A stretch of 24,484 nucleotides of DNA. It comes from a virus. The notes under the pieces were generated by a model that saw only the letters and a list, made by a program, of their open reading frames with translations, searched no databases and was not told the origin of the DNA. A program made the position numbers and the translations under genes. This document shows positions 4,126 to 20,794 of the stretch, piece after piece. Each line of letters begins with the position of its first letter. Positions within the stretch are counted from its first letter, which is position 1. The stretch is taken from IMG/VR virus record IMGVR_UViG_3300042914_000364, positions 1-24,484 of that record; one strand, given 5' to 3'.

Positions 4126-5907
4126 ATGATTGGTAGCCTAATGAGTCGGATGGCGGATGCCGAGAAGTTATCCATTCCGCAATTAAATCAAGCCGTCAAG
4201 AACGGAACAATCCCAGCCTATGTAGGCGTGCCCCTTATTCAAGAAAAAATGAAAGCAGAGCAAGCTGCCAAAGCAATGGTAGCTCAGACTCAAGCCCAAC
4301 CCCCTCTTGCTCGTCAAGTTATGGAGCAAGCAGATATGATGTCTGGTTTAGAGAAGCTTCAGTCTAATCTACCTGAAGAAGGCTATGCTGGTGGTGGCAT
4401 TATTGCGTTTGCAGAAGGTGGTGTATCTTTGCCTGATGAGGACGAAGACGAAGAAAAGAACTTAATGAGCCGCCTCATGGCTGGTATTACTAGCCTTAAA
4501 CAAGGTGTAAGTGACAGAATCCCGTCTAGCGATGCTATTAAAGAAAGCATAGTCAACAAAATGCCGTCTAGTATGCGTAGCGCAATATATGACGGTCCTC
4601 AAAGAGGGGACTATGTATCACCCCCAGCAGAACGTCGTGCCCGTGGCGATCACAAATATGAGAATATGGTTGCAGCAGAAGCCGAGCGTATTGGTCTTGA
4701 CCCCAATATTGCTGTCCATGCACTCTACAAAGAAACAGGCAACCTAAAAAATCCTGAGTCTGCTCGTTCCCGTGCAGGTGCCTTGGGTGTTATGCAGTTA
4801 ATGCCTAAGACCGCTAAAGAGCTTGGTGTTGATCCACTCAATCCAGAAGATAATATCCGTGGTGGGGTGATGTATCTCAAGAAAATGTACGACAAATACC
4901 AAGACCCAACACTTGCCTTAGCTGCTTATAACGCAGGACCTGGTCGAGTTGATAAGGCTTTGAAGAGTGGTAGAGGTATTGAAGGATTGCCCCGTGAAAC
5001 ACAGAACTATGTCATGGCTAGAAACATGGCAGGTGGCGGTATTGTTGCGTTTTCAGCAGGCGGTACTTCGATGCCCGAAGTAGATTTTGAAGCCATAGAT
5101 CCTTTGACTGGTGCGCCTTATGTAGTTCAAGGTCCGCTTGAGGCAGTTGGGCGCGCAGCAAGGAGTGGTAAATCTATTAAGGAATACTATAACGAAAAAC
5201 CAGCTACACCAGCTGAGAAGAAACCCCAATTTAATTTCCCACCTCAAGGGGGTATTGGACCAACAGATGCAGAATTAGGTAGAAATGCGCCTACAGATGC
5301 TGCTCCAGAAGCGTATAAAGAACCCCCAGCAGATAGAGGTATATCTGATATTAAGAACCTACTTAAACAGCGTATGGAAGAATCTGGCAAGCAAAAACGT
5401 ATTGATGCCTATATGTCCCTACTCCAAGCTGGTCTTGGCATGATGGGCGGTTCTTCGCCGTTTGCTGCAGTTAACATTGGTCAAGGCGCTGCTACTGGTG
5501 TTGCCGCTCAAATGGCTGCTCGCAGGTCTCAGGTTGCTGATGAGAACGCAATCCTAACTGGTCAACTTGGTCTATCCCGTGCAGAACTTTATGAGAAAAT
5601 GCGTCGTGATGCTTTGAAGCAACAAGCTGAGAAAACTGCCGCAGAACTTGGGTTAAGAAAATCAGAACAAGGAATACGCCAACAAGCGCAAAATATTCGT
5701 TTAGGTGACTTGCGTCGTAAAGCTTCTGAAGACTGGGATAATAGCCCTCGTAAAGCACAACTTGAGGCTGACCTTGCTAAACAGAAAAAGAACTGGCGTC
5801 AGGATCCTAAACTTCTTGGTCAGTTTGAAATGGCACGTGGTAGATTTATTAACGAATTTGTTAATGTTGGGCAAGCAGATAGCACCCCAAACGCTTCTCA
5901 GCTATAA
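4126..5907 (+). CDS. Virion-associated lytic transglycosylase (SLT domain)
   Basis: This 593-aa protein contains a lytic transglycosylase domain at about residues 175-298. The catalytic glutamate is most likely E203 (in HALYKETGN), followed by the family motifs GALGVMQLMP (218-227) and AYNAGPGRV (267-275). Such enzymes cleave the glycan strands of peptidoglycan, and in virions they open the cell wall for DNA entry. The domain is flanked by two copies of a glycine-hydrophobic motif, GGGIIAFAEGG at 89-99 and GGGIVAFSAGG at 303-313. The C-terminal third is rich in Lys, Gln and Ala and probably helical. In T7 the transglycosylase lies inside gp16; here it is a separate protein next to the giant one. 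The start is one base after the previous stop. Confidence 0.85.
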   Translation: MIGSLMSRMADAEKLSIPQLNQAVKNGTIPAYVGVPLIQEKMKAEQAAKAMVAQTQAQPPLARQVMEQADMMSGLEKLQSNLPEEGYAGGGIIAFAEGGVSLPDEDEDEEKNLMSRLMAGITSLKQGVSDRIPSSDAIKESIVNKMPSSMRSAIYDGPQRGDYVSPPAERRARGDHKYENMVAAEAERIGLDPNIAVHALYKETGNLKNPESARSRAGALGVMQLMPKTAKELGVDPLNPEDNIRGGVMYLKKMYDKYQDPTLALAAYNAGPGRVDKALKSGRGIEGLPRETQNYVMARNMAGGGIVAFSAGGTSMPEVDFEAIDPLTGAPYVVQGPLEAVGRAARSGKSIKEYYNEKPATPAEKKPQFNFPPQGGIGPTDAELGRNAPTDAAPEAYKEPPADRGISDIKNLLKQRMEESGKQKRIDAYMSLLQAGLGMMGGSSPFAAVNIGQGAATGVAAQMAARRSQVADENAILTGQLGLSRAELYEKMRRDALKQQAEKTAAELGLRKSEQGIRQQAQNIRLGDLRRKASEDWDNSPRKAQLEADLAKQKKNWRQDPKLLGQFEMARGRFINEFVNVGQADSTPNASQL

Positions 5908-5916
5908 GGAATCTCC

Positions 5917-8900
5917 ATGATCCTTGATTTACCCAAACTCGGGGCGGTTAGGTTTGACGATAATCTAACCCCAGAACAACTAAATGCTGAGCTAGACAGG
6001 CTTGCTAAGAAATATGAGTTTGAGCTACCTCAAGCTGAAATGGGTTTTGGGGAGATGGCTAGTAAAGCTCTTACCCGTGGTACTAAACGTTTAGGTTCTA
6101 CTTTTGGGGACATCATCCCTGCCATGGGTGCAAAAGCCCTTGGATTTGAAGAGTATGCACAGAAACAATTAGGCGAAGCTGCTGAGACCGAGCAAGAGAT
6201 AGCCAAGTATTACGCTCCTCAATATCCTGAACTTAAAGACGTAAAGGGTATTACTGACGTTCCTGGCTTTGCTCTTGAGACCATCATTGAGCAGATACCC
6301 AATATTGCTACCTCCATAATTCCTGGTGTTGGCGCTGGTGTTATCGCTGCACGTACTGGATTAACTTCATTGGGCAAGAGCCTTATGGTTCAGGGTGCCG
6401 AGCGTGGTTTGGCTGGTCGTGAATTAACCGAGTTTGTAGCGCAAGGAATGGCGCAAGGTGCCGCAACCCGTCAGGCAGTAGGTCAAGGCGCTGGTGTGTT
6501 CCTAGGTTCCTACGCCCAGAATGCCCCTGAAATATTCCAAAACATCTACCAAGAAACGGGTCAGATGGATGTGCCTGCCTCACTATTGTTTGGTGCTGGT
6601 TCTGCTGCCTTAGATTCTGTTCTCCCCGCACAATTAGCTAAGTCCCTAACGGGTCCAGTCAAAGCAGGTATTGTTGAGAAGGTGCTTGAGAAATCAGGCA
6701 TGGACAAAGGCTTACTCCGTTCTATAACAGCAGGTACCTTAAAAGGTATGGGTGCAGAAGGTTTAACGGAAGGCGCTCAAGAAGCAATCAGTATCTATGC
6801 CGAGAACTTTGTAGGCAATAACCCCCAAATATTTGAGAGTGCGGACTGGAACCGCATCATGGAGTCTAGTGTCCGTGGCGCTGTTGCTGGTTCTGCCTTT
6901 GGTGGTGCAGGTGGCGTTGGTACACGAGTCCAAGAAAAGCGAGCAGAGTTTGCAGAGCAGCAAGCCAAGTTAGCCGAAGAACAACGCAGGGAACTAGCTC
7001 GTCAAGTAGAAGAAGCCAACTTAACTATTGACGAATACAACGCCTTACAGAAACAAGGCATGCTTCCGGGTTTAGAACTCGGTGCATATACTAGCCGCCT
7101 TATAGAGCCTAAAGCTAAAGAAGAAGCTCAGAAGGAACTTAAAGGTAAACAGTTGTCGCTATTTGACGAGCAAGGCTTACCAACTAAAACTGCCGAAGCA
7201 TCCAGAGTTAAGGGCGACAAAGCTGAAGCCAATAGGTTACGTCAGTTGCAGCAAAAAGAAGCTGCCGAATTAAAGGCGTCTCAGGCAAAACTTAAAAAGT
7301 TTCTTGCAGCTAAACAAGGCGAATTAACCTTAACAGAAGCCCCACCTGTAGCAGGTATGGCGGTAGAAGGACAACCTGATCTATTTGGTGCACCCCCTGC
7401 CGCACCCATTACACCTGTTGCGGAACCATCGGTAGTAAGTAAGCCAGTTAAGCTTACACCAAAAGAAGTTGCCACAAAGATAGACGATGGCGTATTAGGA
7501 ACTTTGGGTATTGGACCTACCGCACTCATACGTAAAAACAAGTTGCTAGAAGGCAAAGACATATCTAATCCTGCAGATGCAGCGGAAGTAAAACGGGTGC
7601 TAGAAGCCTATGCTGACCGAAAGAACCTTAGCACAAATATTCGTGAGAAAGTTGAAGAGTATCTAAGCCGCCCAGAATTTACACAGGAGGTAATAAGTGA
7701 GCCTATTTCAGAACCTGCCGGACCTGTCGGAGGAGCAGTACAGCCAAGCCTTCCAAGCGATCAGCAACAACCTACCTTTGCACGCACTCCCGAGACCATT
7801 GCAGGACCTGTCGGGGGAGGATTGGTTACTGCTGGACCAGCTCCTGTATCTGTTGCTGGAGGAGAAGAAGCAGTCGGTGGTGCATTAACTAAAAAGCAAC
7901 AAAACGATTTAAAGAAAGCTCAAGAGCGCCTACAGCCTGCTATTGACGAAGAGAATCAGTTTATTGCTGAGACTGACAAACGGGTACTGGACTTTATTAG
8001 TATTGACATGGGTAATACAGAAGGTCTAGAAGATACCGATGCATTTAAGTTAATGCGCATTGCCCCGCTCACCCAAGAATATGTACGTCTAAAAGAAGTT
8101 ACTGAGCAGATTGCGGACGCTAAGCAGCGTGAAAAGAACCTTCGTCAGTTAGAGCTTATTCGTGATGCACTAGCTAGGTCTTCTCCTGAGGCAGTGCTTC
8201 TAGCAGAACAACAAAATAGCAACACTATTGGTGAATACACAAGAAGTGTAAATGGACTAGCTAGGGCGGAACTAGCTATTGAGCAAGAGGCACGCCCCCC
8301 ATCTGCCCAAGCCACCCAAGAACAAATGATTGAGCAAGAACGTGAAGACGCTCAAGAATTACAAGATGAAGCGTTAGCTGCTCAGATGGCAGAAGACTTT
8401 GTTAATTCTAACGTTGCTAAAGCCATACAAAGAAACGAACTTGGCAACGCCTTAGACGCATTGATTAAGGCTGAGAAGAACCCAGAAGTTAAAAAGATTC
8501 TGCAAAAGATAAAAGGGATGGGTCTCAAGACCGCCATCAGGGTAGGCAAGATTCAACCTAAACCCGGCAAGATGAATATCTATGACTTTGCTGAGTTTGA
8601 TCCTGCTACAAATACGATTACCTACGATCCAGCTTTCCTTAACAAAAATACGACTATCCATGAAATAGTCCATGCTGCCGTATCTAAAATACTACTTAAC
8701 CCAAATCACCCACTTACTAAAGAGCTAACTAAGCTGTACGAAGGTGTTTATAACCAGCTAGGTAGTAGCTACGGTGCATTGGACATCCATGAGTTTGCTG
8801 CTGAATTAATAAGCAACCCAGAGTTCCAAGCTACCCTTAAGGCTATCAAAGCCCCCCGTGGCGGCAATATGTTCCAGCGCATGATGCAGGCTATTGCAGA

Positions 8901-11634
8901 GTTCTTTGGCTTCCGTAAGGGCACCTCGGCTTATGACAAGGGTTTACGCACCATCAGCGACATCATTGACCTATCTGGCGACGTAGAAGCTAGTGCTGCT
9001 GACAAGATGTATCACGGTGTTGGACCTAGTGTAAAACAAGGATTAAGTGTAGTTGGGCAGATTGGTCAGAGCATGCCCGCTCTTGCAGGTCGTACTGTAG
9101 ATCAAACCAAAAACTTCTTTAGTAACGTTCAAGATTACGGCTTACTAAAAGCAGGTATGGGTCTGCTCCGTCTGGATAACCTTAATACGATCTACGGCAA
9201 AGAACTGCCCTCTATCCAGACCTTAATTGATGCTCTCGAGAAGCGTAATGGTCAGCAAGAACAAGAGATCAAGAAGATTAATGACAACTACAAACGATTT
9301 AGTGCCGCAGTAAAAGCAGATCCTAAAGCTGCCGAACGCATGAACAACATGGCAGTTGATGCTCGTCTTGCGCAGGTAGATCCTCTTGACCCTAACTTTA
9401 AACCTACAGCTGCTAATGCGGCAGAGTATCGCAGGCTGCGTTCTGTATATACAGGCTTACCTGCCGACCTGCAAACAACATACAAAGATATTCGTCAGGC
9501 ATATGAAGGCGCCTTACAACGTTACGAAGATTTGTTGCTACGCAACGCTTCGCCAAGCATGCGGGATAAACTTAGACTTGAGTTTGAGGCACGTAAAAAG
9601 CTAGTTGCCTACATTCCGTTCTTGCGTAGTGGCGACTATTGGTTAGAGTATGCAGATCCAAAGTCTGGGGAACGCACTGTACAAGCTTTCCAATCGGCTC
9701 GTGAGCGTGATAACTTTGTCGCTAAAGACCTGCCTACAAATACTAAAGTTCGCAAATATCGTAACCTGCATGAGGCTCGCTTTGTAGCTAGTGAGGTACC
9801 ACCTACTACGTTTATTGGCGGCATTATCCGAGACCTAAAGCAGCAAGGTGCTACAGATGCAATGGTTGATAGCGTATATCAGTCTTACCTAGCCTTGATG
9901 CCTGCGGAGTCAATATCCAAGCGATTTATGAAAGCCGAAGACGTACTTGGTATGGAGCGAGATATTGTCCGTGGCTATGGCGACACGATGATTAAGTGGT
10001 CTCGTAAGTTGGCTGACTCCGAGTATGCACCTCAGATTGACCGTGCTATTACTGGCGTTAAAAACGAAGCGTCTGCTATTGGCACAAGTGATGTAGCTGC
10101 TGTATCCGACACAATTAATGAGCAGTCCGCTTTCTTCCATAATCCTACCTATGGCAAAGTAGTTAGTGGCTTAACCTCATTTAGCTATTTTGAGTACATT
10201 GCAGGTAACATATCGTCCGCATTAATTAACTTAAGCACGTTGCCAATGTTCACTTGGCCTATTTTAGGGGCTAAGTTTGGCTTTGATAAAGCTAGTTCCG
10301 CCATGCTTGCAGCAGGTAAGGTAGTTGCCAACGGACTGGATAAGGACCCTAAATACAAAGCCTTGTATCAATCTTTAATGGATCATGCTCAGTTTGAGCA
10401 CACCATGGCTCGTGAAGTTCTTGAAGCCCGTCGTATGACAACAGGTGATTACCTGGGCGTAAAAGCTAAGATTCTCGATACCTTATCTATTCCGTTCTCC
10501 GCCACTGAGCGTTATAACCGTGGGGTAACTGCTGTAGCTGCTTTTGACTTAGCCCGTGCACAGGGTATGAGTGAGGCTGATGCAATTAAATATGCAGTAA
10601 CTACTGTTAAAGACATCAATACTTCAGGTATGGCGGTAACTGCGCCTAAATATATGCAGTCTCCAGTAGGTCGTGTGTTCTTTACCTTTAAGTCATTTGT
10701 ATGGAACAGCGCATTTGTTGTGGCTCGTGCTTTCCATCAGGCATATAAAGGAGAAAGCAAAGAAGTTCGCCGCATTGCACAACGACAGTTACTTGGTATA
10801 TACGGTATGGCTGGTGCCTTTGCTGGAGTTAAGGGATTACCATTCTTTGGCTTTGCAGAAACCGTAGCCCAAATGCTTAATGCTCTGTTTGGTGATGACG
10901 ACGAGCCATTTAACTTTGATGAAGAGATGCGTAACTTCTTTGGTGAGCTGCTTTACAAGGGTCCTACAAACTTCTTAACCAATCTCGAGATAGCCAACCG
11001 TACCGGAGTGGCTCAAGATCTAATCTTCCGTGATGATCCACGTGGTATTGCTGAGCATGGTTATGTATTGTCCGCCATGAAGAACGCATTTGGTCCTGCT
11101 GGCTCTTACTTAATTGGCGCTGAGCGTGGCATTAAAGCCATGAACGAAGGACAAGTAGAACGGGGCATTGAGTCGCTAGTACCTAGCTGGGTACGTAACG
11201 GCATGAAGGGTATGCGGTATATGTCTGAAGGCGCCTTGACTCTGAAAGGCGATCCAATCGAAGAAGATATTGGTGCGTATAACAGCCTCATGCAGATTAT
11301 TGGCTTCTCCCCCGCCTCTCTGTCTTCTACCTACGAAAAGACATCTGCTGCAAAAGGCTATGACCGAGAGGTAGCCCAGCGTAAACAACGTCTACTTAAC
11401 AAGTACGACATGGCACGGACTGCGGGTGACTCTGATTTGATGACGGAAACCAGAGAAGAGATAGAAGCTTTTAACTCTAGGCGTACAAGTCCAAAAGACA
11501 GGATCACGGGAGATACTTTAAACAGGTCTCAGAAAGCCCGTCAAGCTGCGGAAAAGAACATGATTAACGGTGTAACGTTTAGCCGCAACAGAAAAGCTGA
11601 AATCGAAGAGAAGTTCTTTAACGACGAAGACTGA
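5917..11634 (+). CDS. Giant virion protein with zincin (HEIVH) domain and polyvalent-protein C-terminus
   Basis: This 1905-aa protein starts at an ATG with an AAGGA site a few bases upstream. An early hydrophobic, glycine-containing stretch (about residues 127-146, IPNIATSIIPGVGAG) and another near 321-335 could be membrane-active. Residues about 340-470 are Lys/Gln/Glu-rich, and a Pro/Gly linker covers about 590-660. A zinc-metallopeptidase motif HEIVH lies at 915-919, with a downstream HEFAAEL at 958-964 that could supply the third ligand (E959 or E963). Residues from about 1000 to the end resemble the large polyvalent protein regions (LPD38-like) of phage ejected proteins, ending with a Ser/Arg-rich helical segment. 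Its size, place and lack of a separate internal core gene suggest the ejected core protein equivalent to T7 gp16. The metallopeptidase may act on the virion or host envelope, or on a host target after injection; the sequence does not decide. Confidence 0.75.
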   Translation: MILDLPKLGAVRFDDNLTPEQLNAELDRLAKKYEFELPQAEMGFGEMASKALTRGTKRLGSTFGDIIPAMGAKALGFEEYAQKQLGEAAETEQEIAKYYAPQYPELKDVKGITDVPGFALETIIEQIPNIATSIIPGVGAGVIAARTGLTSLGKSLMVQGAERGLAGRELTEFVAQGMAQGAATRQAVGQGAGVFLGSYAQNAPEIFQNIYQETGQMDVPASLLFGAGSAALDSVLPAQLAKSLTGPVKAGIVEKVLEKSGMDKGLLRSITAGTLKGMGAEGLTEGAQEAISIYAENFVGNNPQIFESADWNRIMESSVRGAVAGSAFGGAGGVGTRVQEKRAEFAEQQAKLAEEQRRELARQVEEANLTIDEYNALQKQGMLPGLELGAYTSRLIEPKAKEEAQKELKGKQLSLFDEQGLPTKTAEASRVKGDKAEANRLRQLQQKEAAELKASQAKLKKFLAAKQGELTLTEAPPVAGMAVEGQPDLFGAPPAAPITPVAEPSVVSKPVKLTPKEVATKIDDGVLGTLGIGPTALIRKNKLLEGKDISNPADAAEVKRVLEAYADRKNLSTNIREKVEEYLSRPEFTQEVISEPISEPAGPVGGAVQPSLPSDQQQPTFARTPETIAGPVGGGLVTAGPAPVSVAGGEEAVGGALTKKQQNDLKKAQERLQPAIDEENQFIAETDKRVLDFISIDMGNTEGLEDTDAFKLMRIAPLTQEYVRLKEVTEQIADAKQREKNLRQLELIRDALARSSPEAVLLAEQQNSNTIGEYTRSVNGLARAELAIEQEARPPSAQATQEQMIEQEREDAQELQDEALAAQMAEDFVNSNVAKAIQRNELGNALDALIKAEKNPEVKKILQKIKGMGLKTAIRVGKIQPKPGKMNIYDFAEFDPATNTITYDPAFLNKNTTIHEIVHAAVSKILLNPNHPLTKELTKLYEGVYNQLGSSYGALDIHEFAAELISNPEFQATLKAIKAPRGGNMFQRMMQAIAEFFGFRKGTSAYDKGLRTISDIIDLSGDVEASAADKMYHGVGPSVKQGLSVVGQIGQSMPALAGRTVDQTKNFFSNVQDYGLLKAGMGLLRLDNLNTIYGKELPSIQTLIDALEKRNGQQEQEIKKINDNYKRFSAAVKADPKAAERMNNMAVDARLAQVDPLDPNFKPTAANAAEYRRLRSVYTGLPADLQTTYKDIRQAYEGALQRYEDLLLRNASPSMRDKLRLEFEARKKLVAYIPFLRSGDYWLEYADPKSGERTVQAFQSARERDNFVAKDLPTNTKVRKYRNLHEARFVASEVPPTTFIGGIIRDLKQQGATDAMVDSVYQSYLALMPAESISKRFMKAEDVLGMERDIVRGYGDTMIKWSRKLADSEYAPQIDRAITGVKNEASAIGTSDVAAVSDTINEQSAFFHNPTYGKVVSGLTSFSYFEYIAGNISSALINLSTLPMFTWPILGAKFGFDKASSAMLAAGKVVANGLDKDPKYKALYQSLMDHAQFEHTMAREVLEARRMTTGDYLGVKAKILDTLSIPFSATERYNRGVTAVAAFDLARAQGMSEADAIKYAVTTVKDINTSGMAVTAPKYMQSPVGRVFFTFKSFVWNSAFVVARAFHQAYKGESKEVRRIAQRQLLGIYGMAGAFAGVKGLPFFGFAETVAQMLNALFGDDDEPFNFDEEMRNFFGELLYKGPTNFLTNLEIANRTGVAQDLIFRDDPRGIAEHGYVLSAMKNAFGPAGSYLIGAERGIKAMNEGQVERGIESLVPSWVRNGMKGMRYMSEGALTLKGDPIEEDIGAYNSLMQIIGFSPASLSSTYEKTSAAKGYDREVAQRKQRLLNKYDMARTAGDSDLMTETREEIEAFNSRRTSPKDRITGDTLNRSQKARQAAEKNMINGVTFSRNRKAEIEEKFFNDED

Positions 11635-11704: not shown

Positions 11705-11914
11705 TCAGAGTATATCATCAAGTCTCCAGACTCGTAAACCATACTTGCCCTTCTCCACTACCTGTTTACAAAGCACCTTAATCCCAAGCCGAGTAGCCTC
11801 TGTCTCCACAAACCGCTGGGTAAGACGTCGATCTATACAGGGCACAAAGAAAGAGGTGCCGGGTTTAAACTTCTCCCACTGAATCAGCAGTGGAAGGTTC
11901 AGAATTGTCAGCAT
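11705..11914 (-). CDS. 69-aa protein of unknown function
   Basis: This 69-aa protein starts inside the end of the primase gene and overlaps it by 50 bases in another frame. It contains FKPGTSFFVPCIDRRL (about residues 16-31) and ends with VVEKGKYGLRVWRLDDIL. The mixture of aromatic, Cys and basic residues looks like a genuine small folded protein rather than a shadow. It fits the short space between the primase stop and the terminator. The overlapping reverse frame at 11673-11882 looks less protein-like. The start is not certain: the ATG lacks a clear ribosome site, although GGGAGAAG lies a little inside the frame, so a shorter form is possible. No function can be proposed. Confidence 0.6.
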   Translation of the reverse strand: MLTILNLPLLIQWEKFKPGTSFFVPCIDRRLTQRFVETEATRLGIKVLCKQVVEKGKYGLRVWRLDDIL

Positions 11915-14723
11915 TTAGAAGCACGTTCTCATTAAAAAATTCTAGTTTTGTTGTGTCAAACCACAAGGCATTTACGGCGGCTTGAGTATTAGCCACAGTT
12001 CCTGCGGTCATGCGCTTTTTCTTCGTCCCCAATAAAGCCCCGCTCTTGCGGTATGGGATTAAAGATTCCTCAAAGTTAGCTTGGTTCTTGACGCAGTCGT
12101 CTCTAAAGCTCTTAACAACAATATAAATAATCTTGGTGTCAGGCTCATAGCGAATAGTCAAAGCACCTTTAGGTTCACGGATTGGACCATGCTCCAGCCC
12201 AGTACGACCATCACGGTTGCCGTTAATAACTAAGGTCTCATTAAAGTGACGTTGCAAGAAGCCACCCAAATAGTCATCGCTATCAAACATATACTCACGA
12301 TTGCGTAGGCGCGTCTCTTTAATTAGATTGATACCGTAGTCAAATACAGGCTGGATCTTGATGTCATGTAGACCTAGGGTCTTGGCTACTGTGCCCCCCG
12401 TAATAGCAATTGTTGCCATAGCAGACCAATACCGCTCGGTACTTCTAATCTCTGCGTGGGCGTCTACCTTGACTTGGATCTCTGCCATCTTTGCTAAAAC
12501 CATGGGCAACTGACCAACTAATGCCTGAGCGTACGGCTCGATAGCGTGCCCGTAGTTACTCATTAATCGTCCGAAGTGTTGCTTAGACCAAGTTGGGTCA
12601 TCGTATGGGTCAGGCTTTACATGGGGCTCCAAGATACGCATTAGTTCGCCTTCTGGAAAGCTCTTTATAGATAGCAGTGAATCAGTTACGGACCTATTAG
12701 ACGAACTTACTAAACCCAAAGACCACTTGGCATGGTTCAGACGCTCAGCATTTTCCTGCGACTTCATACGGTTCTTGCCCCTGCCTGACGTTACGTCGTA
12801 GACCTGATTGGACATTTGCTCAGGAGGCATATTGGTTATCTCATCTAGCGTGGCGCACAAACTTTGCATGGTACCGAGTCGCTGCATCCTAGAGTTGTAG
12901 GTATCTTTAGGGGACATGAGTAATTCTTTTGGGCGACCATATATGGAGTTGATCGCATGTAAGACGGTGGTTTTGCCACTACCGCTTTCCCTACTAAGTA
13001 GATTAAGGAGAAAACCGTCAAGATTAGTAAAGCGCATAAGAAGAGACCCGAAGCCCATGAAAAAAGCAAATGCCCTAGCTTCCATACCCTCTCTCGAGTA
13101 AGCATTGATAACATCTTTCCAAACATGAAAATCTCCTTTTGGCTGGAACAGAGGCGCGAGTGGCAGTGTCGGTGCAGATGGTGGGCTGTATGCAACTTCC
13201 GTTGCACGGATTTCTCTGTCGCCAACAATAATACCGCTCTCGTTTTCTAGCCAACCGAACTGCTTGTGGGCTTGTTCTGCCCCCGATGTAAGCTGCAATT
13301 CCTCTACCCACTTGGTTACATATGACATAAGTTCATCCTGTTTTTTACCTAATACAGTCACGCCGTACGAGGCAACTGTGTCTCTGAATTTCTCTTTAGC
13401 CAGCACCGCAGTTAAAGGCATGATGAACTCACGCACTCCGTCTTTGGGCAGGTGCAATCTAAGCAGTATGGTCTCGCCGTGGTCAGGGTCAGCCATCCGT
13501 TTAACCACATAAAAATCATATGGGTAAATCAAATCATCAAACTCTTCGTCGTCTTCCTTGGACTTTTTATGCACAAAGATACCGCCTGACTTGCCCCTAA
13601 AGAATGGGTATGGGTACTTAGGGATAGTGTAGGTCTTAAGTTCCTTGGTAATTGGCTCAACCTCTATTACCTGTTGCTCTTCCTCGGCTTCGACAATCTC
13701 TTTGCCAAGCTGAATTGGTGAAGTAAATTTATGGGTGCAACCCTCACACCCGCTGGGGTTTAGCTTCTTGAATGTTTCACAGGTGTACGGGCCCTTGGTC
13801 TCATTGGCTTTCTTATCAGTATCTTCTACGTTGTACTCGGGGTGATTCTTAGACAGGTTATGAATTGCTTTTTCCCTGTCCACGCATTGATGGGCAATAG
13901 ATAGCCCTGCTCGCCAAAGAGGTTCCTCTATCGTAGTTTGGTTCTCGTAGATATGCAACAGTTGATTGCACCCAGTACCTTCAATGGATTTGACCATGAT
14001 GGTCTTAAACCGTGACTGACTGCTACCAATCAGTGCCATCGTTACTGCATCCATAGGGCGCTTAAACTCAGACTTCTCAATAGCTTTAAGAATGTCGTCC
14101 GTTGGTTTTAAGATTCCTTCTATAGCACTAAGTGATAAGACTGGTGCTACGTACAAAATTTGCACTGGTAAAGGATTCAGTATGTCCTTCAAATGCATCG
14201 TTTCAGGAATCCGTAAAATTCGAGCAGCATCAGCTGGTACAGCGGGGTCAATATGGAACTGGTTCTCTACTGATAAAGCCTTGAGTCGCTCAGCAAAGGG
14301 CTTCCATTCCTGCCTAGTAATGGCTTTGTCTAGAACCCAGTACACGTGTGCCCCACGTCCAGACTGAATGATTGTAGGTTTGGGTAAACCTGTGGTCTTG
14401 CAGAACTGCCGTAATGCCACTAGCCCGTCGTCTAGCGTTGCATATGGTTTGTCTTCTCCACAATCCAAATCAATAAAGAAAGATTTTAGTTCTAGCGCAT
14501 TGGTTGCATACCGCCCTTGATCGGCAGAACCGAATTTAGCCAGCGCAAAGAATGCGTTGTAGTTATCCTCTAGTAGCTTGTCCGCTCTAGCACTGATTTC
14601 TTCAATGCTACTAACAAACTTCTGTCTTATATTGCCTAGGGAATCGTTGCCCCATACGCAGTAATTCTCCCCTTCTTGTAGGGGTGGTAGTACTAAAGAA
14701 AGAAACTCTGTCCTCGAAAGCAT
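11865..14723 (-). CDS. Primase-polymerase (AEP-like) fused to DUF927-type helicase
   Basis: This is a predicted 952-aa replication protein; numbering is from the ATG at 14723. The N-terminal part has archaeo-eukaryotic primase features: FFIDLDCGED (aspartates at 85 and 87), SGRGAHVYW (H126) and a basic ARILRIPET segment. A probable zinc-binding cluster follows (C315, C326, C329). The C-terminal half matches DUF927-type ATPases, with Walker A ESGSGKTTV (K584) and Walker B TLDE (D627, E628). It should prime DNA synthesis and unwind duplex DNA at the fork, working with the family A polymerase. The ATG at 14723 is preceded by AGGA five bases upstream; a longer frame begins at a GTG at 14786 with no good ribosome site. 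The gene lies downstream of the HTH gene after a 98-base spacer and is followed by a 69-aa gene. Confidence 0.8.
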   Translation of the reverse strand: MLSRTEFLSLVLPPLQEGENYCVWGNDSLGNIRQKFVSSIEEISARADKLLEDNYNAFFALAKFGSADQGRYATNALELKSFFIDLDCGEDKPYATLDDGLVALRQFCKTTGLPKPTIIQSGRGAHVYWVLDKAITRQEWKPFAERLKALSVENQFHIDPAVPADAARILRIPETMHLKDILNPLPVQILYVAPVLSLSAIEGILKPTDDILKAIEKSEFKRPMDAVTMALIGSSQSRFKTIMVKSIEGTGCNQLLHIYENQTTIEEPLWRAGLSIAHQCVDREKAIHNLSKNHPEYNVEDTDKKANETKGPYTCETFKKLNPSGCEGCTHKFTSPIQLGKEIVEAEEEQQVIEVEPITKELKTYTIPKYPYPFFRGKSGGIFVHKKSKEDDEEFDDLIYPYDFYVVKRMADPDHGETILLRLHLPKDGVREFIMPLTAVLAKEKFRDTVASYGVTVLGKKQDELMSYVTKWVEELQLTSGAEQAHKQFGWLENESGIIVGDREIRATEVAYSPPSAPTLPLAPLFQPKGDFHVWKDVINAYSREGMEARAFAFFMGFGSLLMRFTNLDGFLLNLLSRESGSGKTTVLHAINSIYGRPKELLMSPKDTYNSRMQRLGTMQSLCATLDEITNMPPEQMSNQVYDVTSGRGKNRMKSQENAERLNHAKWSLGLVSSSNRSVTDSLLSIKSFPEGELMRILEPHVKPDPYDDPTWSKQHFGRLMSNYGHAIEPYAQALVGQLPMVLAKMAEIQVKVDAHAEIRSTERYWSAMATIAITGGTVAKTLGLHDIKIQPVFDYGINLIKETRLRNREYMFDSDDYLGGFLQRHFNETLVINGNRDGRTGLEHGPIREPKGALTIRYEPDTKIIYIVVKSFRDDCVKNQANFEESLIPYRKSGALLGTKKKRMTAGTVANTQAAVNALWFDTTKLEFFNENVLLNADNSEPSTADSVGEV

Positions 14724-14728
14724 AGCCG

Positions 14729-14732
14729 TCCT
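14729..14732 (-). promoter_or_regulatory. Ribosome-binding site (AGGA) deciding the primase start
   Basis: On the - strand AGGA lies five bases before the ATG at 14723. The alternative upstream GTG at 14786 has only a GG immediately adjacent and no usable spacing, so this site favours the ATG. Confidence 0.6.
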
Positions 14733-14768
14733 ATATGAGCCGTCGTTGTTATAAAAAGGAATGGGCAG

Positions 14769-14788
14769 GGGTGTGACGGCATACACCC
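14769..14788. repeat. Inverted repeat between the HTH and primase genes
   Basis: GGGTGT (14769-14774) pairs with ACACCC (14783-14788) around an eight-base loop, with a possible extra G-T pair at the base. The hairpin falls in the 98-base spacer upstream of the primase ATG, so in the - strand mRNA it would sit before the primase ribosome site. Its role is unknown and chance is possible. Confidence 0.3.
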
Positions 14789-14821: not shown

Positions 14822-15052
14822 TTATTTTAATTTATCAACTAGTTTTTTCATCTTCTCAGCGTGTTTGCCGGAGACTATAGATTTACCTCGAAACCAAGAA
14901 TATACAGTCATTCGGCTTACTCCAAAGAAACTCGCTACGTCAGATACGGGTATATCCTTATTAATACAAACCCTACCTAGTTGAACTCCCAATAGCTGGG
15001 AGTCGGCAGATTTGATCTCATCCGCCATCAGAAGCGAATATCCCTTTGGCAT
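14822..15052 (-). CDS. Small HTH DNA-binding protein
   Basis: This 76-aa protein contains a clear helix-turn-helix of the Cro/XRE or small activator kind at about residues 36-55, VSDVASFFGVSRMTVYSWF. Its recognition helix VSRMTVYSWF matches typical phage repressors and transcription regulators. There is no dimerisation or effector domain, so it is likely a Cro-like regulator or DNA-binding accessory. It starts at an ATG overlapping the stop of the SSB-like gene (TAATG); an in-frame ATG lies nine codons in. It ends 98 bases before the primase ATG, so it is probably co-transcribed with the primase. It could autoregulate this operon, acting at the nearby hairpin or at the promoter at 16533-16560. 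No binding site has been proven. Confidence 0.75.
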   Translation of the reverse strand: MPKGYSLLMADEIKSADSQLLGVQLGRVCINKDIPVSDVASFFGVSRMTVYSWFRGKSIVSGKHAEKMKKLVDKLK

Positions 15053-15942
15053 TATGCGTCATCCCATTCGGTCAGCAGCTTTGAGATGTCTTTCTTAGGA
15101 GCAGGGGCTTCTTCTTTCTTTGCCGTACGCTTAGTAGGTTCTTCAACTGCCTCGACTTCCACAGTTACCGACTCTACCTTTGCTTCTGCTTTAGCTTCTA
15201 ACTTAGCAGGTGGCTTAGCATTATCTACCTCTGCAACCGTCATAGTAATAGCCGACTTAGCCGCAGCGGACTGTCCTTGTTGAATTGCTACAGCGTGCTC
15301 TTCTGCATCCAATACACGTACTGGTTTGAAAGCCAACTTAGGTGTTGCGCTATCAGTATCAAAACGCATCTCAGTTACAACCGCAGTGATGGGCACACCC
15401 TTACTACCAATCATCTTGGCATAAGTTTGCAAAGGCCATTTGCCTGGCTCGCCTGCACCGAAGATAGATGACGCTGGCAAGGTTAACTGAAGAATCTCAC
15501 CACCAACATCGTTGGCTAATACAACTGCCAAACGTTGGCTATAACGGCAAGCACGGCTATCGCCTTGACCTGAACCCTTGGCATTTTGTGGGCAGTCCAC
15601 GCAACGCTTGGATTGTGGGTTCTCCGACTTTGGACTAGGCACTTCGCCATCAGAAGACCAGCAGTCAGGTGCAGTTACTTCGCCTTCTACATATGTCTTA
15701 GCATAAAACGTACGAGATACTTTTGGTGAAGCGGCTACGATAACTACGTTCATCGCACGGTCTTCGTTCTTTGCTACTTCTTTGCCGCTAACCATCATGC
15801 GCCATACACCGCCTTTGATGGAAATACGCTTCATACCACTTGTACCACCGCCACCCATTAGGGCTTTGGTTGTATCGTCTAACTGGGTTTCTTTCAAATA
15901 ACTAGGTAGACCCGAACCTAATACAGATAATTCATTACTCAT
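15052..15942 (-). CDS. Probable single-stranded DNA-binding / replication accessory protein
   Basis: This 296-aa protein starts at an ATG with a strong GAGGAG site six bases upstream. An in-frame longer version from 15981 would overlap the preceding small gene and has no good site. Four cysteines (94, 114, 117 and 132) in the pattern C-x19-C-x2-C-x14-C may bind zinc. Beta-rich segments surround them, ending with LQLTLPASSIFG. Residues about 221-285 are a low-complexity, Ala/Lys/Glu-rich linker, and the protein ends with an acidic tail, SKLLTEWDDA. A folded DNA-binding domain followed by a flexible linker and an acidic tip is typical of bacterial SSB and T7 gp2.5. Its place in the replication operon agrees. 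The fold is not recognised directly, so function is inferred. It shares one base with the HTH gene start. Confidence 0.55.
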   Translation of the reverse strand: MSNELSVLGSGLPSYLKETQLDDTTKALMGGGGTSGMKRISIKGGVWRMMVSGKEVAKNEDRAMNVVIVAASPKVSRTFYAKTYVEGEVTAPDCWSSDGEVPSPKSENPQSKRCVDCPQNAKGSGQGDSRACRYSQRLAVVLANDVGGEILQLTLPASSIFGAGEPGKWPLQTYAKMIGSKGVPITAVVTEMRFDTDSATPKLAFKPVRVLDAEEHAVAIQQGQSAAAKSAITMTVAEVDNAKPPAKLEAKAEAKVESVTVEVEAVEEPTKRTAKKEEAPAPKKDISKLLTEWDDA

Positions 15943-15948
15943 TTGTCG

Positions 15949-15954
15949 CTCCTC
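15949..15954 (-). promoter_or_regulatory. Strong ribosome-binding site (GAGGAG) of the SSB-like gene
   Basis: GAGGAG on the - strand lies six bases before the ATG at 15942 and just past the stop of the 51-aa secreted protein gene. It decides the start of the SSB-like gene in favour of 15942 rather than 15981. Confidence 0.75.
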
Positions 15955-15959
15955 TAAAA

Positions 15960-16115
15960 TTAAAAACAAGTTGTGTTGCAATTACCCCATTGGTCACAAC
16001 ATACTGTGCATACAACGAATCTACCATCCGCAGTTGTGATGGTTTGTGTGCGACAGTTAGCATAGACCGCAGTGGCAAAAGCAAGAGTTAAAAATCCTAC
16101 TAGCACTCTTTTCAT
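15960..16115 (-). CDS. Secreted cysteine-rich microprotein (51 aa)
   Basis: This short gene begins with ATG at 16115 and ends with TAA at 15962-15960. An AGGAG site is five bases upstream and overlaps the TAG stop of the previous gene. The protein has a classical signal peptide: MKRVLVGFLTLAFATAVYA, with positive residues, an eleven-residue hydrophobic core and a V-Y-A cleavage site after residue 19. The predicted mature chain of 32 residues has six cysteines (21, 36, 39, 40, 46, 50), enough for three disulfides in an oxidising periplasm. No lipobox is present, so it is probably soluble. It lies between the coiled-coil gene and the SSB-like gene with tight spacing, and so is expressed with the replication genes. 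Function is unknown: superinfection exclusion, an envelope-acting peptide or an inhibitor of a host periplasmic enzyme are guesses. Confidence 0.8.
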   Translation of the reverse strand: MKRVLVGFLTLAFATAVYANCRTQTITTADGRFVVCTVCCDQWGNCNTTCF

Positions 16116-16123
16116 AACTACTC

Positions 16124-16504
16124 CTATCTTTTGACAATTGCAATAGTTTGTGTTGCATCCGCATTTAGCCCCGGCGGATGTAGATCGGGGTTTTCTTCTA
16201 AGAACTGATTCATGTTTGTAGTGTTGATACGTTGATGTAGCAACGCAAATGCATCATGTTCTCTGATGAAGTTGTACATGGACTGCCAATCGTTAGTCCA
16301 ATATCTTTTTGTTGTGCGCATTGAAATCGTACCGTATTCCGTACGCATGGTTTGTACACCTTGTTCTTTGCACAACTCTAGTATTTCCCTAGCAACTAGG
16401 TCTTGTTGTTCTTGCAGTTCGCTTACTTCTTTTTCTAACTCAAGACGTTTAGCACGGATTTTTGTGTAAATCTTAGCCAGCCTCTCGGCATTTACTTCAC
16501 TCAT
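16124..16504 (-). CDS. Coiled-coil protein of unknown function
   Basis: This 126-aa protein starts at the ATG at 16504, six bases after AAGGAG. A longer in-frame start at 16573 would run through the promoter and into the helicase gene and has no site. Residues about 5-50 are a Lys/Glu/Leu-rich helix with heptad character (RLELEKEVSELQEQQDLV), most likely a coiled coil. The C-terminal half has KRYWTNDWQSMYNF, and LLHQRINTTNMNQFLEENP followed by a short PPGLNADAT segment. In outline this could recall Gam-like or recombination-accessory proteins, but I do not recognise it firmly. It is the first gene after promoter 16533-16560, so its product should be among the most abundant of the operon. Confidence 0.65.
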   Translation of the reverse strand: MSEVNAERLAKIYTKIRAKRLELEKEVSELQEQQDLVAREILELCKEQGVQTMRTEYGTISMRTTKRYWTNDWQSMYNFIREHDAFALLHQRINTTNMNQFLEENPDLHPPGLNADATQTIAIVKR

Positions 16505-16532: not shown

Positions 16533-16560
16533 ATATTAATACTAATCTGTACTTTGTCAA
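16533..16560 (-). promoter_or_regulatory. Sigma70-like promoter for the primase operon
   Basis: On the - strand TTGACA (16560-16555) is followed after 16 bases by TAATAT (16538-16533). The expected start is near 16526, giving a leader of about 20 bases that includes the AAGGAG site of the coiled-coil gene. The -35 box contains the TGA stop of the helicase gene (16559-16557). It shares TTGACAAAGT and several spacer bases with the promoter at 18153-18180. Confidence 0.7.
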
Positions 16561-18098
16561 GTACCTTGCACAATATTTTTATACAGGTCGATTAGTCGTG
16601 CATGAATATCAACCTTCTCTGACAACATCTTGTAGATTCTTCTCTCTACGGGTGAACCCTGAATGTGAACTACGGTGCAAGGGTTACGCTGCCCGGCCCG
16701 GTGGACACGTGCGTTCGCCTGCAAATATGTTTCTATGGATGTAATTGGACCCCACCAGACAACAACGTTTGCCGCATGTAATGTAACTCCATGAGCAGCC
16801 GCTTGCGGTTGTATTACAAGGACTTGCGGGGTGTCCTCTGTTTGGAACCTAGCAAATATCTCGGTACGTTTAGTCGCAGTTACCCCGCCGTGTATGGTCT
16901 CCGAAGTAATGCCGTTATTTTTTAATTCTTCTGCGATGATGTCGATGGCATGTCTAAATGGTGCGAACACAATAACTTTGTGGCTTGCTTCCTCAATAAC
17001 CTCAAGCAACGCGGTCATTCTAGATTTGGCATCAAACGCTACGATCTCCCCACTATCCGAATATACTGCACCGCAAGATAACTGAAGAAGCTTGTTTAAA
17101 TTAGCCGCCGCATTTACTGTCGAGATTTCTTCCCCTGCCGCTATGGTCAACATGTTTTTACGTAAGCTCTCGTAATACTTTAGCTGTTGTGTTGTAAGCG
17201 GTACTTCACGAGTTACGTAGGTCATGTCAGGCAAGTCAAGGCACTCTTCCTTGGTAAAACGGATTGCTGGTTGTAGCACCTCATGCACAGTATTCTCAGA
17301 ACTAATTTTGGGTATCCACTTAAATGTTGTAATGCGTTGCATTACCATGTCCCTAAAAGCACCAAAGAACTTGGGTACCCCTGACGGATTGATAATCTTG
17401 GCTAGTCCGTACGCATCAGTAGGCGACTGAGAAGCGGGGGTTCCTGTCAGCATCCATACCCACATGGTAGGGCGTAGAGAAGTGTTAAGTGTCTTCCAAC
17501 GTTTGGTAGATACGTTTTTGTAGGCATTTGCCTCGTCAATCACAATTAGGTCAAAGTTCTTTACGCAGTCCTTAATAATTTCTAGCCCGTCATAGTTACA
17601 AATCACAAACTCAGCCGAACTGTTGGCAGCTTCAATTCTTTTTTCTTTCGAGTAGCTGTGGGCTATGGCGCAACTGCGATGCATGGCAAACTTAAAGAGG
17701 TCATTTTCCCAAGCCGACTGCATAATAGATAGCGGACATAACACCAAGACTCTCTTAATAACACCGAGGTTCATCAAATAGTCGGCAGCCCAAATCACAG
17801 ACGACGTCTTACCTGTGCCTTGTTCGTTAAAACAGAAAGCCCGACGATGTAAGGTTAAGAACGATGCAGTTGTTTTTTGATGGTCGAACGGTTTGTATAG
17901 CCCAGGCCAGTCGTAGTGCGCCTCAATGGGAGATGGCACATTCTTGATGTGTAAGTTCTTTAATACTTGGGCTTCTTCCAGCCCCCACTTGACAAGCACT
18001 TCCCCCGAATCTAGTATTTTCGATTTAGGAATTACTGTTGTAATGCGTTGCGGCTCTTTAATCCTTAGCAGGAGAGCCTTGTTATCTATTATTTGCAC
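16557..18098 (-). CDS. SNF2-family DNA helicase/translocase
   Basis: This superfamily 2 ATPase carries all main SNF2 motifs; residues are numbered from the GTG at 18098 (513 aa). Motif I is NEQGTGKTSS (K97), motif II is DEAN (188-191) in place of the usual DEAH, and motif III is LTGTPAS (TGTP at 218-221). The C-terminal lobe has AHGVTLHAANVVVWW and the arginine-finger motif VI QANARVHRAGQ (460-470). It is predicted to move along duplex DNA using ATP, perhaps for fork remodelling, recombination or protein removal, as in T4 UvsW-like roles. An upstream in-frame GTG at 18146 coincides with the predicted transcription start and has no ribosome site, so 18098 is preferred; both remain possible. 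Its stop lies in the -35 box of the next promoter. Confidence 0.88.
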   Translation of the reverse strand: MQIIDNKALLLRIKEPQRITTVIPKSKILDSGEVLVKWGLEEAQVLKNLHIKNVPSPIEAHYDWPGLYKPFDHQKTTASFLTLHRRAFCFNEQGTGKTSSVIWAADYLMNLGVIKRVLVLCPLSIMQSAWENDLFKFAMHRSCAIAHSYSKEKRIEAANSSAEFVICNYDGLEIIKDCVKNFDLIVIDEANAYKNVSTKRWKTLNTSLRPTMWVWMLTGTPASQSPTDAYGLAKIINPSGVPKFFGAFRDMVMQRITTFKWIPKISSENTVHEVLQPAIRFTKEECLDLPDMTYVTREVPLTTQQLKYYESLRKNMLTIAAGEEISTVNAAANLNKLLQLSCGAVYSDSGEIVAFDAKSRMTALLEVIEEASHKVIVFAPFRHAIDIIAEELKNNGITSETIHGGVTATKRTEIFARFQTEDTPQVLVIQPQAAAHGVTLHAANVVVWWGPITSIETYLQANARVHRAGQRNPCTVVHIQGSPVERRIYKMLSEKVDIHARLIDLYKNIVQGT

Positions 18099-18152
18099 TC
18101 TACTCTTTCCAATAGGGTGTAGACCAAAACCGAAGTTTTGATCCACGTTTTA

Positions 18153-19443: not shown

Positions 19444-20162
19444 TTATGACTTTCGTGTGTAGCTAAGTTGTTCTGCCCTAGCTCTGTGATTTCATAACCA
19501 TGACCTTTCAGGTATTCAAACAAAGCGGTGCGCTTCTCCTGAAACCACGGCTTCCATGTCCACGCTTCAAAGATAATGGGCGGGTAGTTACTTGCCTTGA
19601 TTGTTTCAATACCACCTTTAATTACCTCAAGTTCATGCCCTTCTACATCAACCTTAATTAACTTAATGTTGTCAAGGGTAAGAAAGTCTAACGGGGCTAC
19701 ATCAATCCGATCAGTTGTGTTTACAGTACTGCACTCGTACTCATTCTCACGAACTTCTTTGTCAATACTAAATGCACCGATGTTTGTTTCCGCTGTATAG
19801 TCAGGCATTGCAAGATCAATCGACGCATTTTCGTTAGACAACGCTAGTTCATATACATACACATTCTCTAGGCTGTTGATAACTACGTTGGCACATAGCT
19901 GGTAGCTTACTATCCGTTGTGGTTCAAACGCATGAAACTTTAGCTTAGGAATCTTTCGTGCAAGGGGTACACAGAATGTACCTAGGTTTGCACCGATATC
20001 CAGCACTAATCCATCAGGCTTATCCATTAGTATCTTTAACGCAAGCTGGTGGATGTCGTTCTCGTACAGTTCTTTCTTCAAGTGATTCGATATTAAATCT
20101 TGCCCCTTGAATACAAGAAACTGTGTACCGTCTACTTTAACTAGTTCACAGTTTGGTATCAT
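19440..20162 (-). CDS. FkbM-family methyltransferase
   Basis: This 240-aa protein is a class I SAM-dependent methyltransferase of the FkbM type. The SAM-binding motif LVLDIGANLGTF occupies residues 52-63 (D55). The FEP motif (79-81), KVDVEGHELEVIKGG (170-184) and the IIFEAW strand (196-201) are as in this family. FkbM members usually O-methylate sugars or polyketides, and their substrates in phages are mostly unknown. It overlaps the upstream gene of unknown function (ATGA) and the nuclease gene (GTGA), and lies one gene away from a glycosyltransferase. A joint role in glycan or nucleic acid modification is therefore an attractive inference. Its C-terminal tail is polar and unremarkable. Confidence 0.85.
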   Translation of the reverse strand: MIPNCELVKVDGTQFLVFKGQDLISNHLKKELYENDIHQLALKILMDKPDGLVLDIGANLGTFCVPLARKIPKLKFHAFEPQRIVSYQLCANVVINSLENVYVYELALSNENASIDLAMPDYTAETNIGAFSIDKEVRENEYECSTVNTTDRIDVAPLDFLTLDNIKLIKVDVEGHELEVIKGGIETIKASNYPPIIFEAWTWKPWFQEKRTALFEYLKGHGYEITELGQNNLATHESHK

Positions 20163-20794
20163 CTTTTAATCTCCTCAAAATTGTAAAACCATTCGTCCTT
20201 GGCGCTCCACTTGGCATGGTTTTCTACGCTATGTACCTCGGTAGGAATGCGGAAATCAGGTGTTTTAAGCACGGCAGGCACAAGGGATACGTCATACCAA
20301 AGACAACGGTTGTTCGGTTGGCAGGCAAACTGTCCATTGTCTAACTTGATAAAGTTGTACGACTTATGTTCCTCGACCCCCTCACTAAAGGTTGTATCCA
20401 AGCGATTACTGTCAGGATCGGCAAAGTCAATGGTGAATAAGTAATTACCAAAGTGAAACTGCTTATCCTTACCAAAGTATTTAATCTTTAGCCCACGCAG
20501 GTTAGACTTCTCAATCACTGCCATATCGTAAGACAGACAGTCCCATATCTGTAAATGATCTAACGGCAACGGCTCGGTTACTTCTTTCCATACGTATGCA
20601 CTAATGGGTAGCTTGTCATACAACGCACCATAGTTAGTCAGCATGGATTCAATACGAAACGCTTGCCCCTTGATTGCTTTGGCAGTCATCCATACGCATG
20701 GCTCTAATTCTCCATGCCCCTTCTCATGGTTGTAAAGGTACTCTTTACGCACAAAGCATTTAACGGGGGGTATATTGGCTACAAGGAATGTCAT
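20159..20794 (-). CDS. Protein of unknown function in the glycosyltransferase/methyltransferase cassette
   Basis: I do not recognise the function of this 211-aa protein, but its sequence looks well conserved in style: VANIPPVKCFVRKEYLYNHE at the start, then a Glu-Pro-Cys segment and YGALYDKLPISAYVWKEV (about 55-72). Later it has HFGNYLFTIDFADPDSNRLD (about 114-133) and NGQFACQPNNRCLWYDVSL. Many aromatic residues and alternating charged strands suggest a globular alpha/beta protein without membrane segments or a signal peptide. It lies between a GT-A glycosyltransferase (one base away) and an FkbM methyltransferase (ATGA overlap), so it may work in the same modification pathway. No catalytic motif is visible. 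Confidence 0.7.
   Translation of the reverse strand: MTFLVANIPPVKCFVRKEYLYNHEKGHGELEPCVWMTAKAIKGQAFRIESMLTNYGALYDKLPISAYVWKEVTEPLPLDHLQIWDCLSYDMAVIEKSNLRGLKIKYFGKDKQFHFGNYLFTIDFADPDSNRLDTTFSEGVEEHKSYNFIKLDNGQFACQPNNRCLWYDVSLVPAVLKTPDFRIPTEVHSVENHAKWSAKDEWFYNFEEIKR

What the first reader, a model, noticed from the sequence alone, without database searches (positions are those of the whole stretch)
15960..16115. Hidden secreted Cys-rich microprotein inside a phage replication operon
A 51-aa frame, too short for ordinary gene callers, has a strong AGGAG site, a textbook signal peptide (cleavage after V-Y-A) and six cysteines in a 32-residue mature chain. It is placed between replication genes under a strong sigma70-like promoter, so it would be made with the replication proteins and exported. 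Envelope export from a replication operon suggests action on host surface biology, such as superinfection exclusion or inhibition of a periplasmic enzyme. I cannot name a described family.
Basis: partly seen in the sequence, partly recalled or inferred. Interest (0 to 1): 0.78.

Follow-up and report, generated by a model that had tools for sequence, protein, structure and literature searches.

The report
Secreted six-cysteine peptide of freshwater phages
The tiny gene is real: it belongs to an unnamed family of exported, disulfide-rich phage peptides that unrelated phages carry as an optional single gene inside their DNA-recombination operons, probably to change the envelope of the infected bacterium.

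Summary
On the minus strand (16115 to 15960) a 51-codon frame has an AGGAG site, a type-I signal peptide (VYA cleavage) and six cysteines. It is a gene: 74 distinct relatives were collected from uncultured phages, all passing the signal-peptide rule, all with exactly six mature cysteines. Substitutions against the closest variants are mostly synonymous (about 17.5 of 38 sites versus 3.5 of 115 nonsynonymous). No Pfam, PHROGs, NCBIfam or PDB family matches, and I found no paper describing it. AlphaFold gives the mature chain a confident three-stranded beta sheet (pLDDT 92). The gene sits tightly in operons (71 of 72 on the strand of the upstream gene, median gap 7 nt) next to ERF/RecT/SSB/exonuclease genes of unrelated phages (51 of 74 within 3 genes; background 8%). 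Sister phages with 94-98% identical SSB-like proteins lack it cleanly, so it is an optional single-gene cassette. Best explanation: an early exported effector that acts on the host envelope, most likely superinfection exclusion, which works like T4 Spackle (also encoded among replication genes) or T5 Llp, but is homologous to neither. Export, disulfides and function are inferred, not shown.

The parts
15960..16115 (-). microprotein gene, 51 aa plus stop
   Evidence: 74 distinct family members and purifying selection
16059..16115 (-). Sec/SPase I signal peptide MKRVLVGFLTLAFATAVYA (residues 1-19)
   Evidence: rule met by 74 of 74 members, Ala at -1 in all; AlphaFold helix 2-16
15963..16058 (-). 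mature six-cysteine domain (residues 20-51), predicted three-stranded beta sheet
16121..16125 (-). AGGAG ribosome-binding site overlapping the stop codon of the upstream gene
15949..15954 (-). GAGGAG ribosome-binding site of the SSB-like gene, directly downstream of the microprotein stop
16533..16560 (-). TTGACA-16-TAATAT promoter-like site upstream of the Gam-like gene, conserved in sister phages
16124..16504 (-). upstream neighbour, 126 aa, DUF7307 (Pam3 gp33-like); weak Mu Gam similarity below cut-off; phrog_13900
15052..15942 (-). downstream neighbour, 296 aa, phrog_27714, called SSB-like here (function of that family is unknown)
16557..18146 (-). SNF2/DEAD helicase
11865..14786 (-). DUF927 primase/helicase-like protein

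Best explanation
It is a real phage gene encoding a precursor that is exported by Sec, cut by signal peptidase I after VYA, and folded in the periplasm into a disulfide-stapled, three-stranded beta-sheet peptide of about 32 residues. It is an optional single-gene cassette carried in early recombination/replication operons of many unrelated phages. The most likely job is superinfection exclusion: made early, with the recombination proteins, it binds a conserved host envelope component from the periplasmic side (for example the periplasmic face of an outer-membrane phage receptor or of the DNA-entry machinery) and closes the cell to further phages. Shown here: gene, conservation, signal peptide pattern, context, optionality. 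Inferred: export, disulfides, early timing. Hypothesis only: target and exclusion.
For: Strong purifying selection: window versus L006 has 17.5 synonymous changes over 37.6 sites and 3.5 nonsynonymous over 115.4; 18 of 21 differing bases are third positions. Compact mature fold predicted with pLDDT 92. Early-operon placement: next to ERF, RecT, Sak, SSB, YqaJ and PD-(D/E)XK genes, 51 of 74 within three genes versus 8% of other genes in the same loci, median gap 7 nt and 71 of 72 on the same strand. Optional and mobile: clean absence in sister phages at two different loci, 47 distinct neighbour pairs, as expected of an accessory host-interaction gene. Precedent: T4 Spackle is an exported, non-lipidated, early exclusion protein (PMC7677548), and its gene lies between primase 61 and helicase 41, with uvsX close by. 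Small disulfide-bearing periplasmic exclusion proteins that remodel outer-membrane receptors are known: Llp (PMC9586334) and Rtp45 (PMC12685063). Similar mature sequences across unrelated backbones point to a host target more than to a part of each phage's own virion (inference).
Against: No experiment and no structural or sequence match to any exclusion protein; one of 74 members touches the PHROGs spackle family at E = 0.062, which is noise. Known receptor-blocking exclusion peptides are lipoproteins; this one lacks a lipobox. Presence in only some phages of a group, mostly beside recombination genes, could also fit anti-defence or host-takeover roles. The host is unknown, so no receptor can be named.
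Confidence: 0.35

Rival explanations
1. Host-takeover effector: the peptide inhibits a periplasmic host enzyme or stress pathway (protease, Dsb system, cell-wall or division machinery) to favour phage production, as small early genes beside the lambda red genes do from the cytoplasm.
For: Early-operon position, optional presence, conserved compact fold with six cysteines.
Against: No similarity to any inhibitor; the mature chain is nearly neutral (net charge 0 or +1 in 71 of 74), so it is not an ordinary cationic membrane-active peptide.
Confidence: 0.27
2. Spackle-like mechanism: it inhibits a peptidoglycan hydrolase, either the virion transglycosylase of incoming phages or host lysozyme-type enzymes.
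For: T4 Spackle precedent (PMC7677548) with the same kind of genomic position; the window phage has a transglycosylase-like virion gene at 4126-5907; a lysozyme inhibitor (PliC, 3oe3) is among the non-significant fold matches.
Against: The fold match has E = 1.9 and is one of many generic beta-meander hits; the peptide is conserved across unrelated phages, which argues against a target in each phage's own tail.
Confidence: 0.17
3. Anti-defence: it neutralises an envelope-located bacterial defence.
For: Patchy presence in otherwise near-identical phages and early-operon position.
Against: No specific envelope defence is implicated; the DarB-like antirestriction gene elsewhere in the window is unrelated evidence.
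Confidence: 0.1
4. Lysis-timing or signalling peptide: acting in the periplasm (like T4 RI) or released on lysis.
For: Export signal and small size; spackle mutants of T4 also change lysis timing (PMC7677548).
Against: The common neighbours are recombination and replication genes, not lysis genes.
Confidence: 0.06
5. Not exported: a cytoplasmic helper of the recombination genes with a hydrophobic N-terminus, or no gene at all.
For: Constant neighbourhood of ssDNA-binding and annealing genes.
Against: Invariant Ala at -1, 74 of 74 signal-peptide rule, six invariant cysteines and no basic surface suited to DNA; strong purifying selection.
Confidence: 0.05

Closest known systems
T4 Spackle (gp61.3, sp; phrog_1586)
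   Same: Small, Sec-exported, non-lipidated, periplasmic, early product encoded among replication and recombination genes (PMC7677548).
   Different: 75-residue alpha-helical bundle with one disulfide; no significant sequence similarity; here 32 residues, six cysteines, beta sheet.
T5 Llp, T1/phi80 Cor and Rtp45 exclusion lipoproteins
   Same: Phage proteins of about 6-8 kDa acting in the periplasm; Llp/Cor and Rtp45 have an intramolecular disulfide (PMC9586334, PMC12685063).
   Different: They are lipoproteins, and Llp is encoded next to the receptor-binding protein gene; this family has an SPase I site, no lipobox, three potential disulfides, and lies in the recombination operon.
Small early genes beside lambda red and P22 erf (kil, sieB region; from memory)
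   Same: Accessory host-takeover or exclusion genes in the operon of the recombination functions.
   Different: Those products are not known as secreted six-cysteine peptides; homology to them was not tested one by one, but no PHROGs family matches.

Membership tests
T4 Spackle (phrog_1586) | significant profile similarity | tested here: not met
   1 of 74 members at E = 0.062; the window protein has no match
T4 Spackle (phrog_1586) | alpha-helical bundle with one disulfide, mature chain about 75 residues | tested here: not met
   32 residues, six cysteines, three beta strands predicted
T4 Spackle (phrog_1586) | inhibits the virion lysozyme | not testable with these tools
   needs biochemistry
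Llp/Cor/Rtp45 exclusion lipoproteins | lipobox with Cys at +1 of the mature chain | tested here: not met
   AYA/VYA/VWA/AWA then usually one variable residue before Cys; aromatic or Gln where the lipobox needs Leu/Val/Ile; only 2 of 74 touch the Pfam lipobox model, at E about 0.01
Llp/Cor/Rtp45 exclusion lipoproteins | gene beside receptor-binding or tail genes (as reported for Llp) | tested here: not met
   gene lies in the recombination/replication operon
Llp/Cor/Rtp45 exclusion lipoproteins | blocks an outer-membrane phage receptor | not testable with these tools
   needs adsorption assays
Cationic antimicrobial or membrane-active peptides | clearly positive, amphipathic mature chain | tested here: not met
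   net charge 0 or +1 in 71 of 74
Any Pfam, NCBIfam, PHROGs or PDB family | match above the curated or significant threshold | tested here: not met
   fold searches with no match at E <= 0.001

The most novel reading that the evidence does not exclude
A previously undescribed, widespread class of phage-exported, disulfide-stapled beta-sheet mini-proteins that move as single-gene cassettes among the recombination operons of unrelated phages and disable one conserved envelope target (a receptor, entry factor or envelope-based defence) of their hosts.
Probability: 0.4. Interest if true: 0.8.

Novelty: new variant of a known kind. Interest (0 to 1): 0.64.

Why it matters
A 50-codon gene that annotation misses turns out to be a strongly constrained accessory gene of these phages. 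Its repeated link to single-strand annealing, SSB and exonuclease genes across unrelated backbones, its clean presence or absence in near-identical sisters, and its export signal make a direct test possible: a phage peptide of about 3.5 kDa acting at the bacterial envelope. If it blocks entry, it would be among the smallest superinfection-exclusion proteins, and a natural, stable mini-binder to an envelope protein of environmental bacteria that are hard to study.

Tried and rejected
Chance frame: rejected. Lipoprotein: rejected (no lipobox). Cationic antimicrobial peptide: rejected on charge. Redox-active CxxC: unlikely, because C36-x2-C39 lies in a predicted beta strand, not at a helix N-terminus, and all six cysteines are invariant (inference). 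Superficial resemblances in cysteine or threonine spacing to unrelated disulfide-rich peptides (heat-stable enterotoxins, insect antifreeze proteins) came from memory only and were not pursued; nothing in the context supports them. Fold search: only generic beta-meander matches, E about 0.5 or worse against the PDB and 0.09 or worse against viral models. Host assignment failed; the only cellular hit is the end of a Runella MAG contig where phage-like genes abut host genes, which may be a chimera. Plasmids: none. Deposited phages: only two near-identical Manatee Spring records; the weak hits in Moraxella and Fusobacterium phages look like chance. Portal, sheath and capsid searches on the records were mostly empty and settle no morphology. 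Literature searches found no description of the family.

Full report
The feature. The window is a 24,484-base IMG/VR virus fragment. The reported frame lies on the minus strand, ATG at 16115 to TAA at 15960, and encodes MKRVLVGFLTLAFATAVYANCRTQTITTADGRFVVCTVCCDQWGNCNTTCF. AGGAG lies 5 nt before the ATG and overlaps the stop of the preceding gene; the SSB-like gene starts 17 nt after the stop codon with its own GAGGAG. The frame is the only one of 342 short start-to-stop frames in the window with a signal-peptide pattern and six mature cysteines, and 0 of 13,024 frames in 40 Markov windows have both. The signal-peptide test is a rule of my own (basic n-region, hydrophobic core, small residues at -3 and -1), not SignalP.

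It is a gene family. A few of these are chance matches, but 137 ORFs in the loci (several loci overlap or repeat) match a family HMM, and they reduce to 74 distinct proteins. All 74 pass the signal-peptide rule, all have Ala at -1 and exactly six mature cysteines. Invariant in the 74-row alignment are A19, C21, C36, C39, C40, G44, N45, C46 and C50; T23, T25, T37, T38, T48 and F51 are at 90% or more. G44, N45, F51 and five of the cysteines were part of the search pattern, so their conservation there is partly built in. A scan that excludes the final F found only 8 stretches, and these too end one residue after the last cysteine. Against the window, L006 and L007 differ at 21 bases, 18 and 17 of them third positions. 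Pairwise counts for L006 are 17.5 synonymous changes per 37.6 sites and 3.5 nonsynonymous per 115.4; the pooled family pN/pS is 0.32 in the mature part and 0.55 in the signal peptide, with synonymous sites near saturation.

Fold. AlphaFold on the 74-row alignment gives an N-terminal helix and three strands; on the mature chain alone (59 rows) mean pLDDT is 92, with strands at mature residues 2-8, 14-21 and 27-31; pTM is only 0.45, as is usual for so short a chain. No fold match reaches E <= 0.001 in the PDB or the viral library. Disulfide pairing was not determined.

Surroundings. In the window the gene lies between a DUF7307 gene (weakly Mu Gam-like) and a 296-aa gene of phrog_27714, which I call SSB-like on position only, below an SNF2 helicase and above an HTH protein and a DUF927 primase-like gene. 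In L010-L029 it sits on the other side of the same SSB-like gene. In most other phages the neighbours are different but of the same functional kind: ERF, RecT and Sak annealing proteins, SSB proteins, YqaJ and PD-(D/E)XK exonucleases, Gp157, endonuclease VII. Counting eight such gene clusters, 51 of 74 members have one within three genes against 8% of genes elsewhere in the same loci, and 61 of 74 within five against 20%. The members are not independent, so this is a description and not a test, but there are 47 distinct neighbour pairs. The gene is co-directional with its upstream gene in 71 of 72 cases, with a median gap of 7 nt.

An optional cassette. Sister phages L159-L162 have 94-98% identical SSB-like proteins but run straight from the Gam-like gene into the SSB-like gene at the point where the window has the microprotein. 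The same clean difference appears at an ERF locus between L239 and L244. None of 43 sister records searched whole carries the gene elsewhere, though most are fragments. Among 80 ERF relatives only 5 have it near ERF. So the gene is gained and lost as a unit, yet is under purifying selection where present.

What it most likely does. Export and disulfide folding follow from the sequence pattern; early expression follows from the operon and the conserved promoter-like site; neither is shown. An optional, exported, early phage protein placed among recombination genes fits superinfection exclusion or envelope takeover. The closest functional precedent is T4 Spackle: exported, non-lipidated, early and periplasmic (PMC7677548), with its gene between primase 61 and helicase 41 and near uvsX. 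Llp and Rtp45 show that periplasmic phage proteins of this size class can close outer-membrane receptors (PMC9586334, PMC12685063). Because similar mature sequences are shared by unrelated phages, I favour a conserved host target over a target in each phage's own tail. I put receptor- or entry-type exclusion at 0.35, other host takeover at 0.27, a Spackle-like hydrolase inhibitor at 0.17 and anti-defence at 0.10.

Comparison and novelty. By sequence, signal type, length and predicted fold it belongs to neither Spackle nor the Llp/Cor lipoproteins (see membership tests), and no Pfam, PHROGs, NCBIfam or PDB family covers it. The kind of thing, a small exported phage protein acting at the envelope, is known; this family, its fold and its repeated tie to recombination modules are, as far as the held literature shows, not described. 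That search covers open-licence papers only, and large small-gene catalogues may contain it unnamed. The freshwater origin in the title is an inference: the one record with a stated source is from Manatee Spring, and the IMG/VR records carry no environment label here.

Noticed in passing
L278, about 555 nt downstream of the ERF gene: A second, unrelated secreted Cys-rich frame (MKKAIAIALLAVTGIASAACPAYAPYNCVPGYNGKMICGCGR, 4 Cys) in a similar position, suggesting that the ERF operon is a slot for exported microproteins.
   Followed up: partly
L281, L288, L290, L302, L306, L311, L312, L316, L317, about 0.8-1.3 kb downstream of ERF: Recurring 30-33 aa hydrophobic frames (MRPLKMTKRLLWMLLVMSW... type) with ribosome-binding sites, not identified.
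   Followed up: no
L033 (MW202462.1, Manatee Spring phage), 755-898: A true family member that is not annotated; a gene is called on the opposite strand there.
   Followed up: yes
L148 (JALQYJ010000183.1, Runella MAG), 1-1100: Phage-like genes including a family member abut Runella genes at a contig end: a chimeric contig or a prophage remnant.
   Followed up: partly
window 5917-11634 (+): A 1905-aa protein with DarB-like antirestriction similarity (phrog_10089, E = 9.8e-80), probably ejected with the DNA.
   Followed up: no
window 20159-20794 (-): A 211-aa protein strongly matching phrog_3704, labelled ferredoxin and filed as a moron (E = 6.1e-84), but long for a ferredoxin.
   Followed up: no
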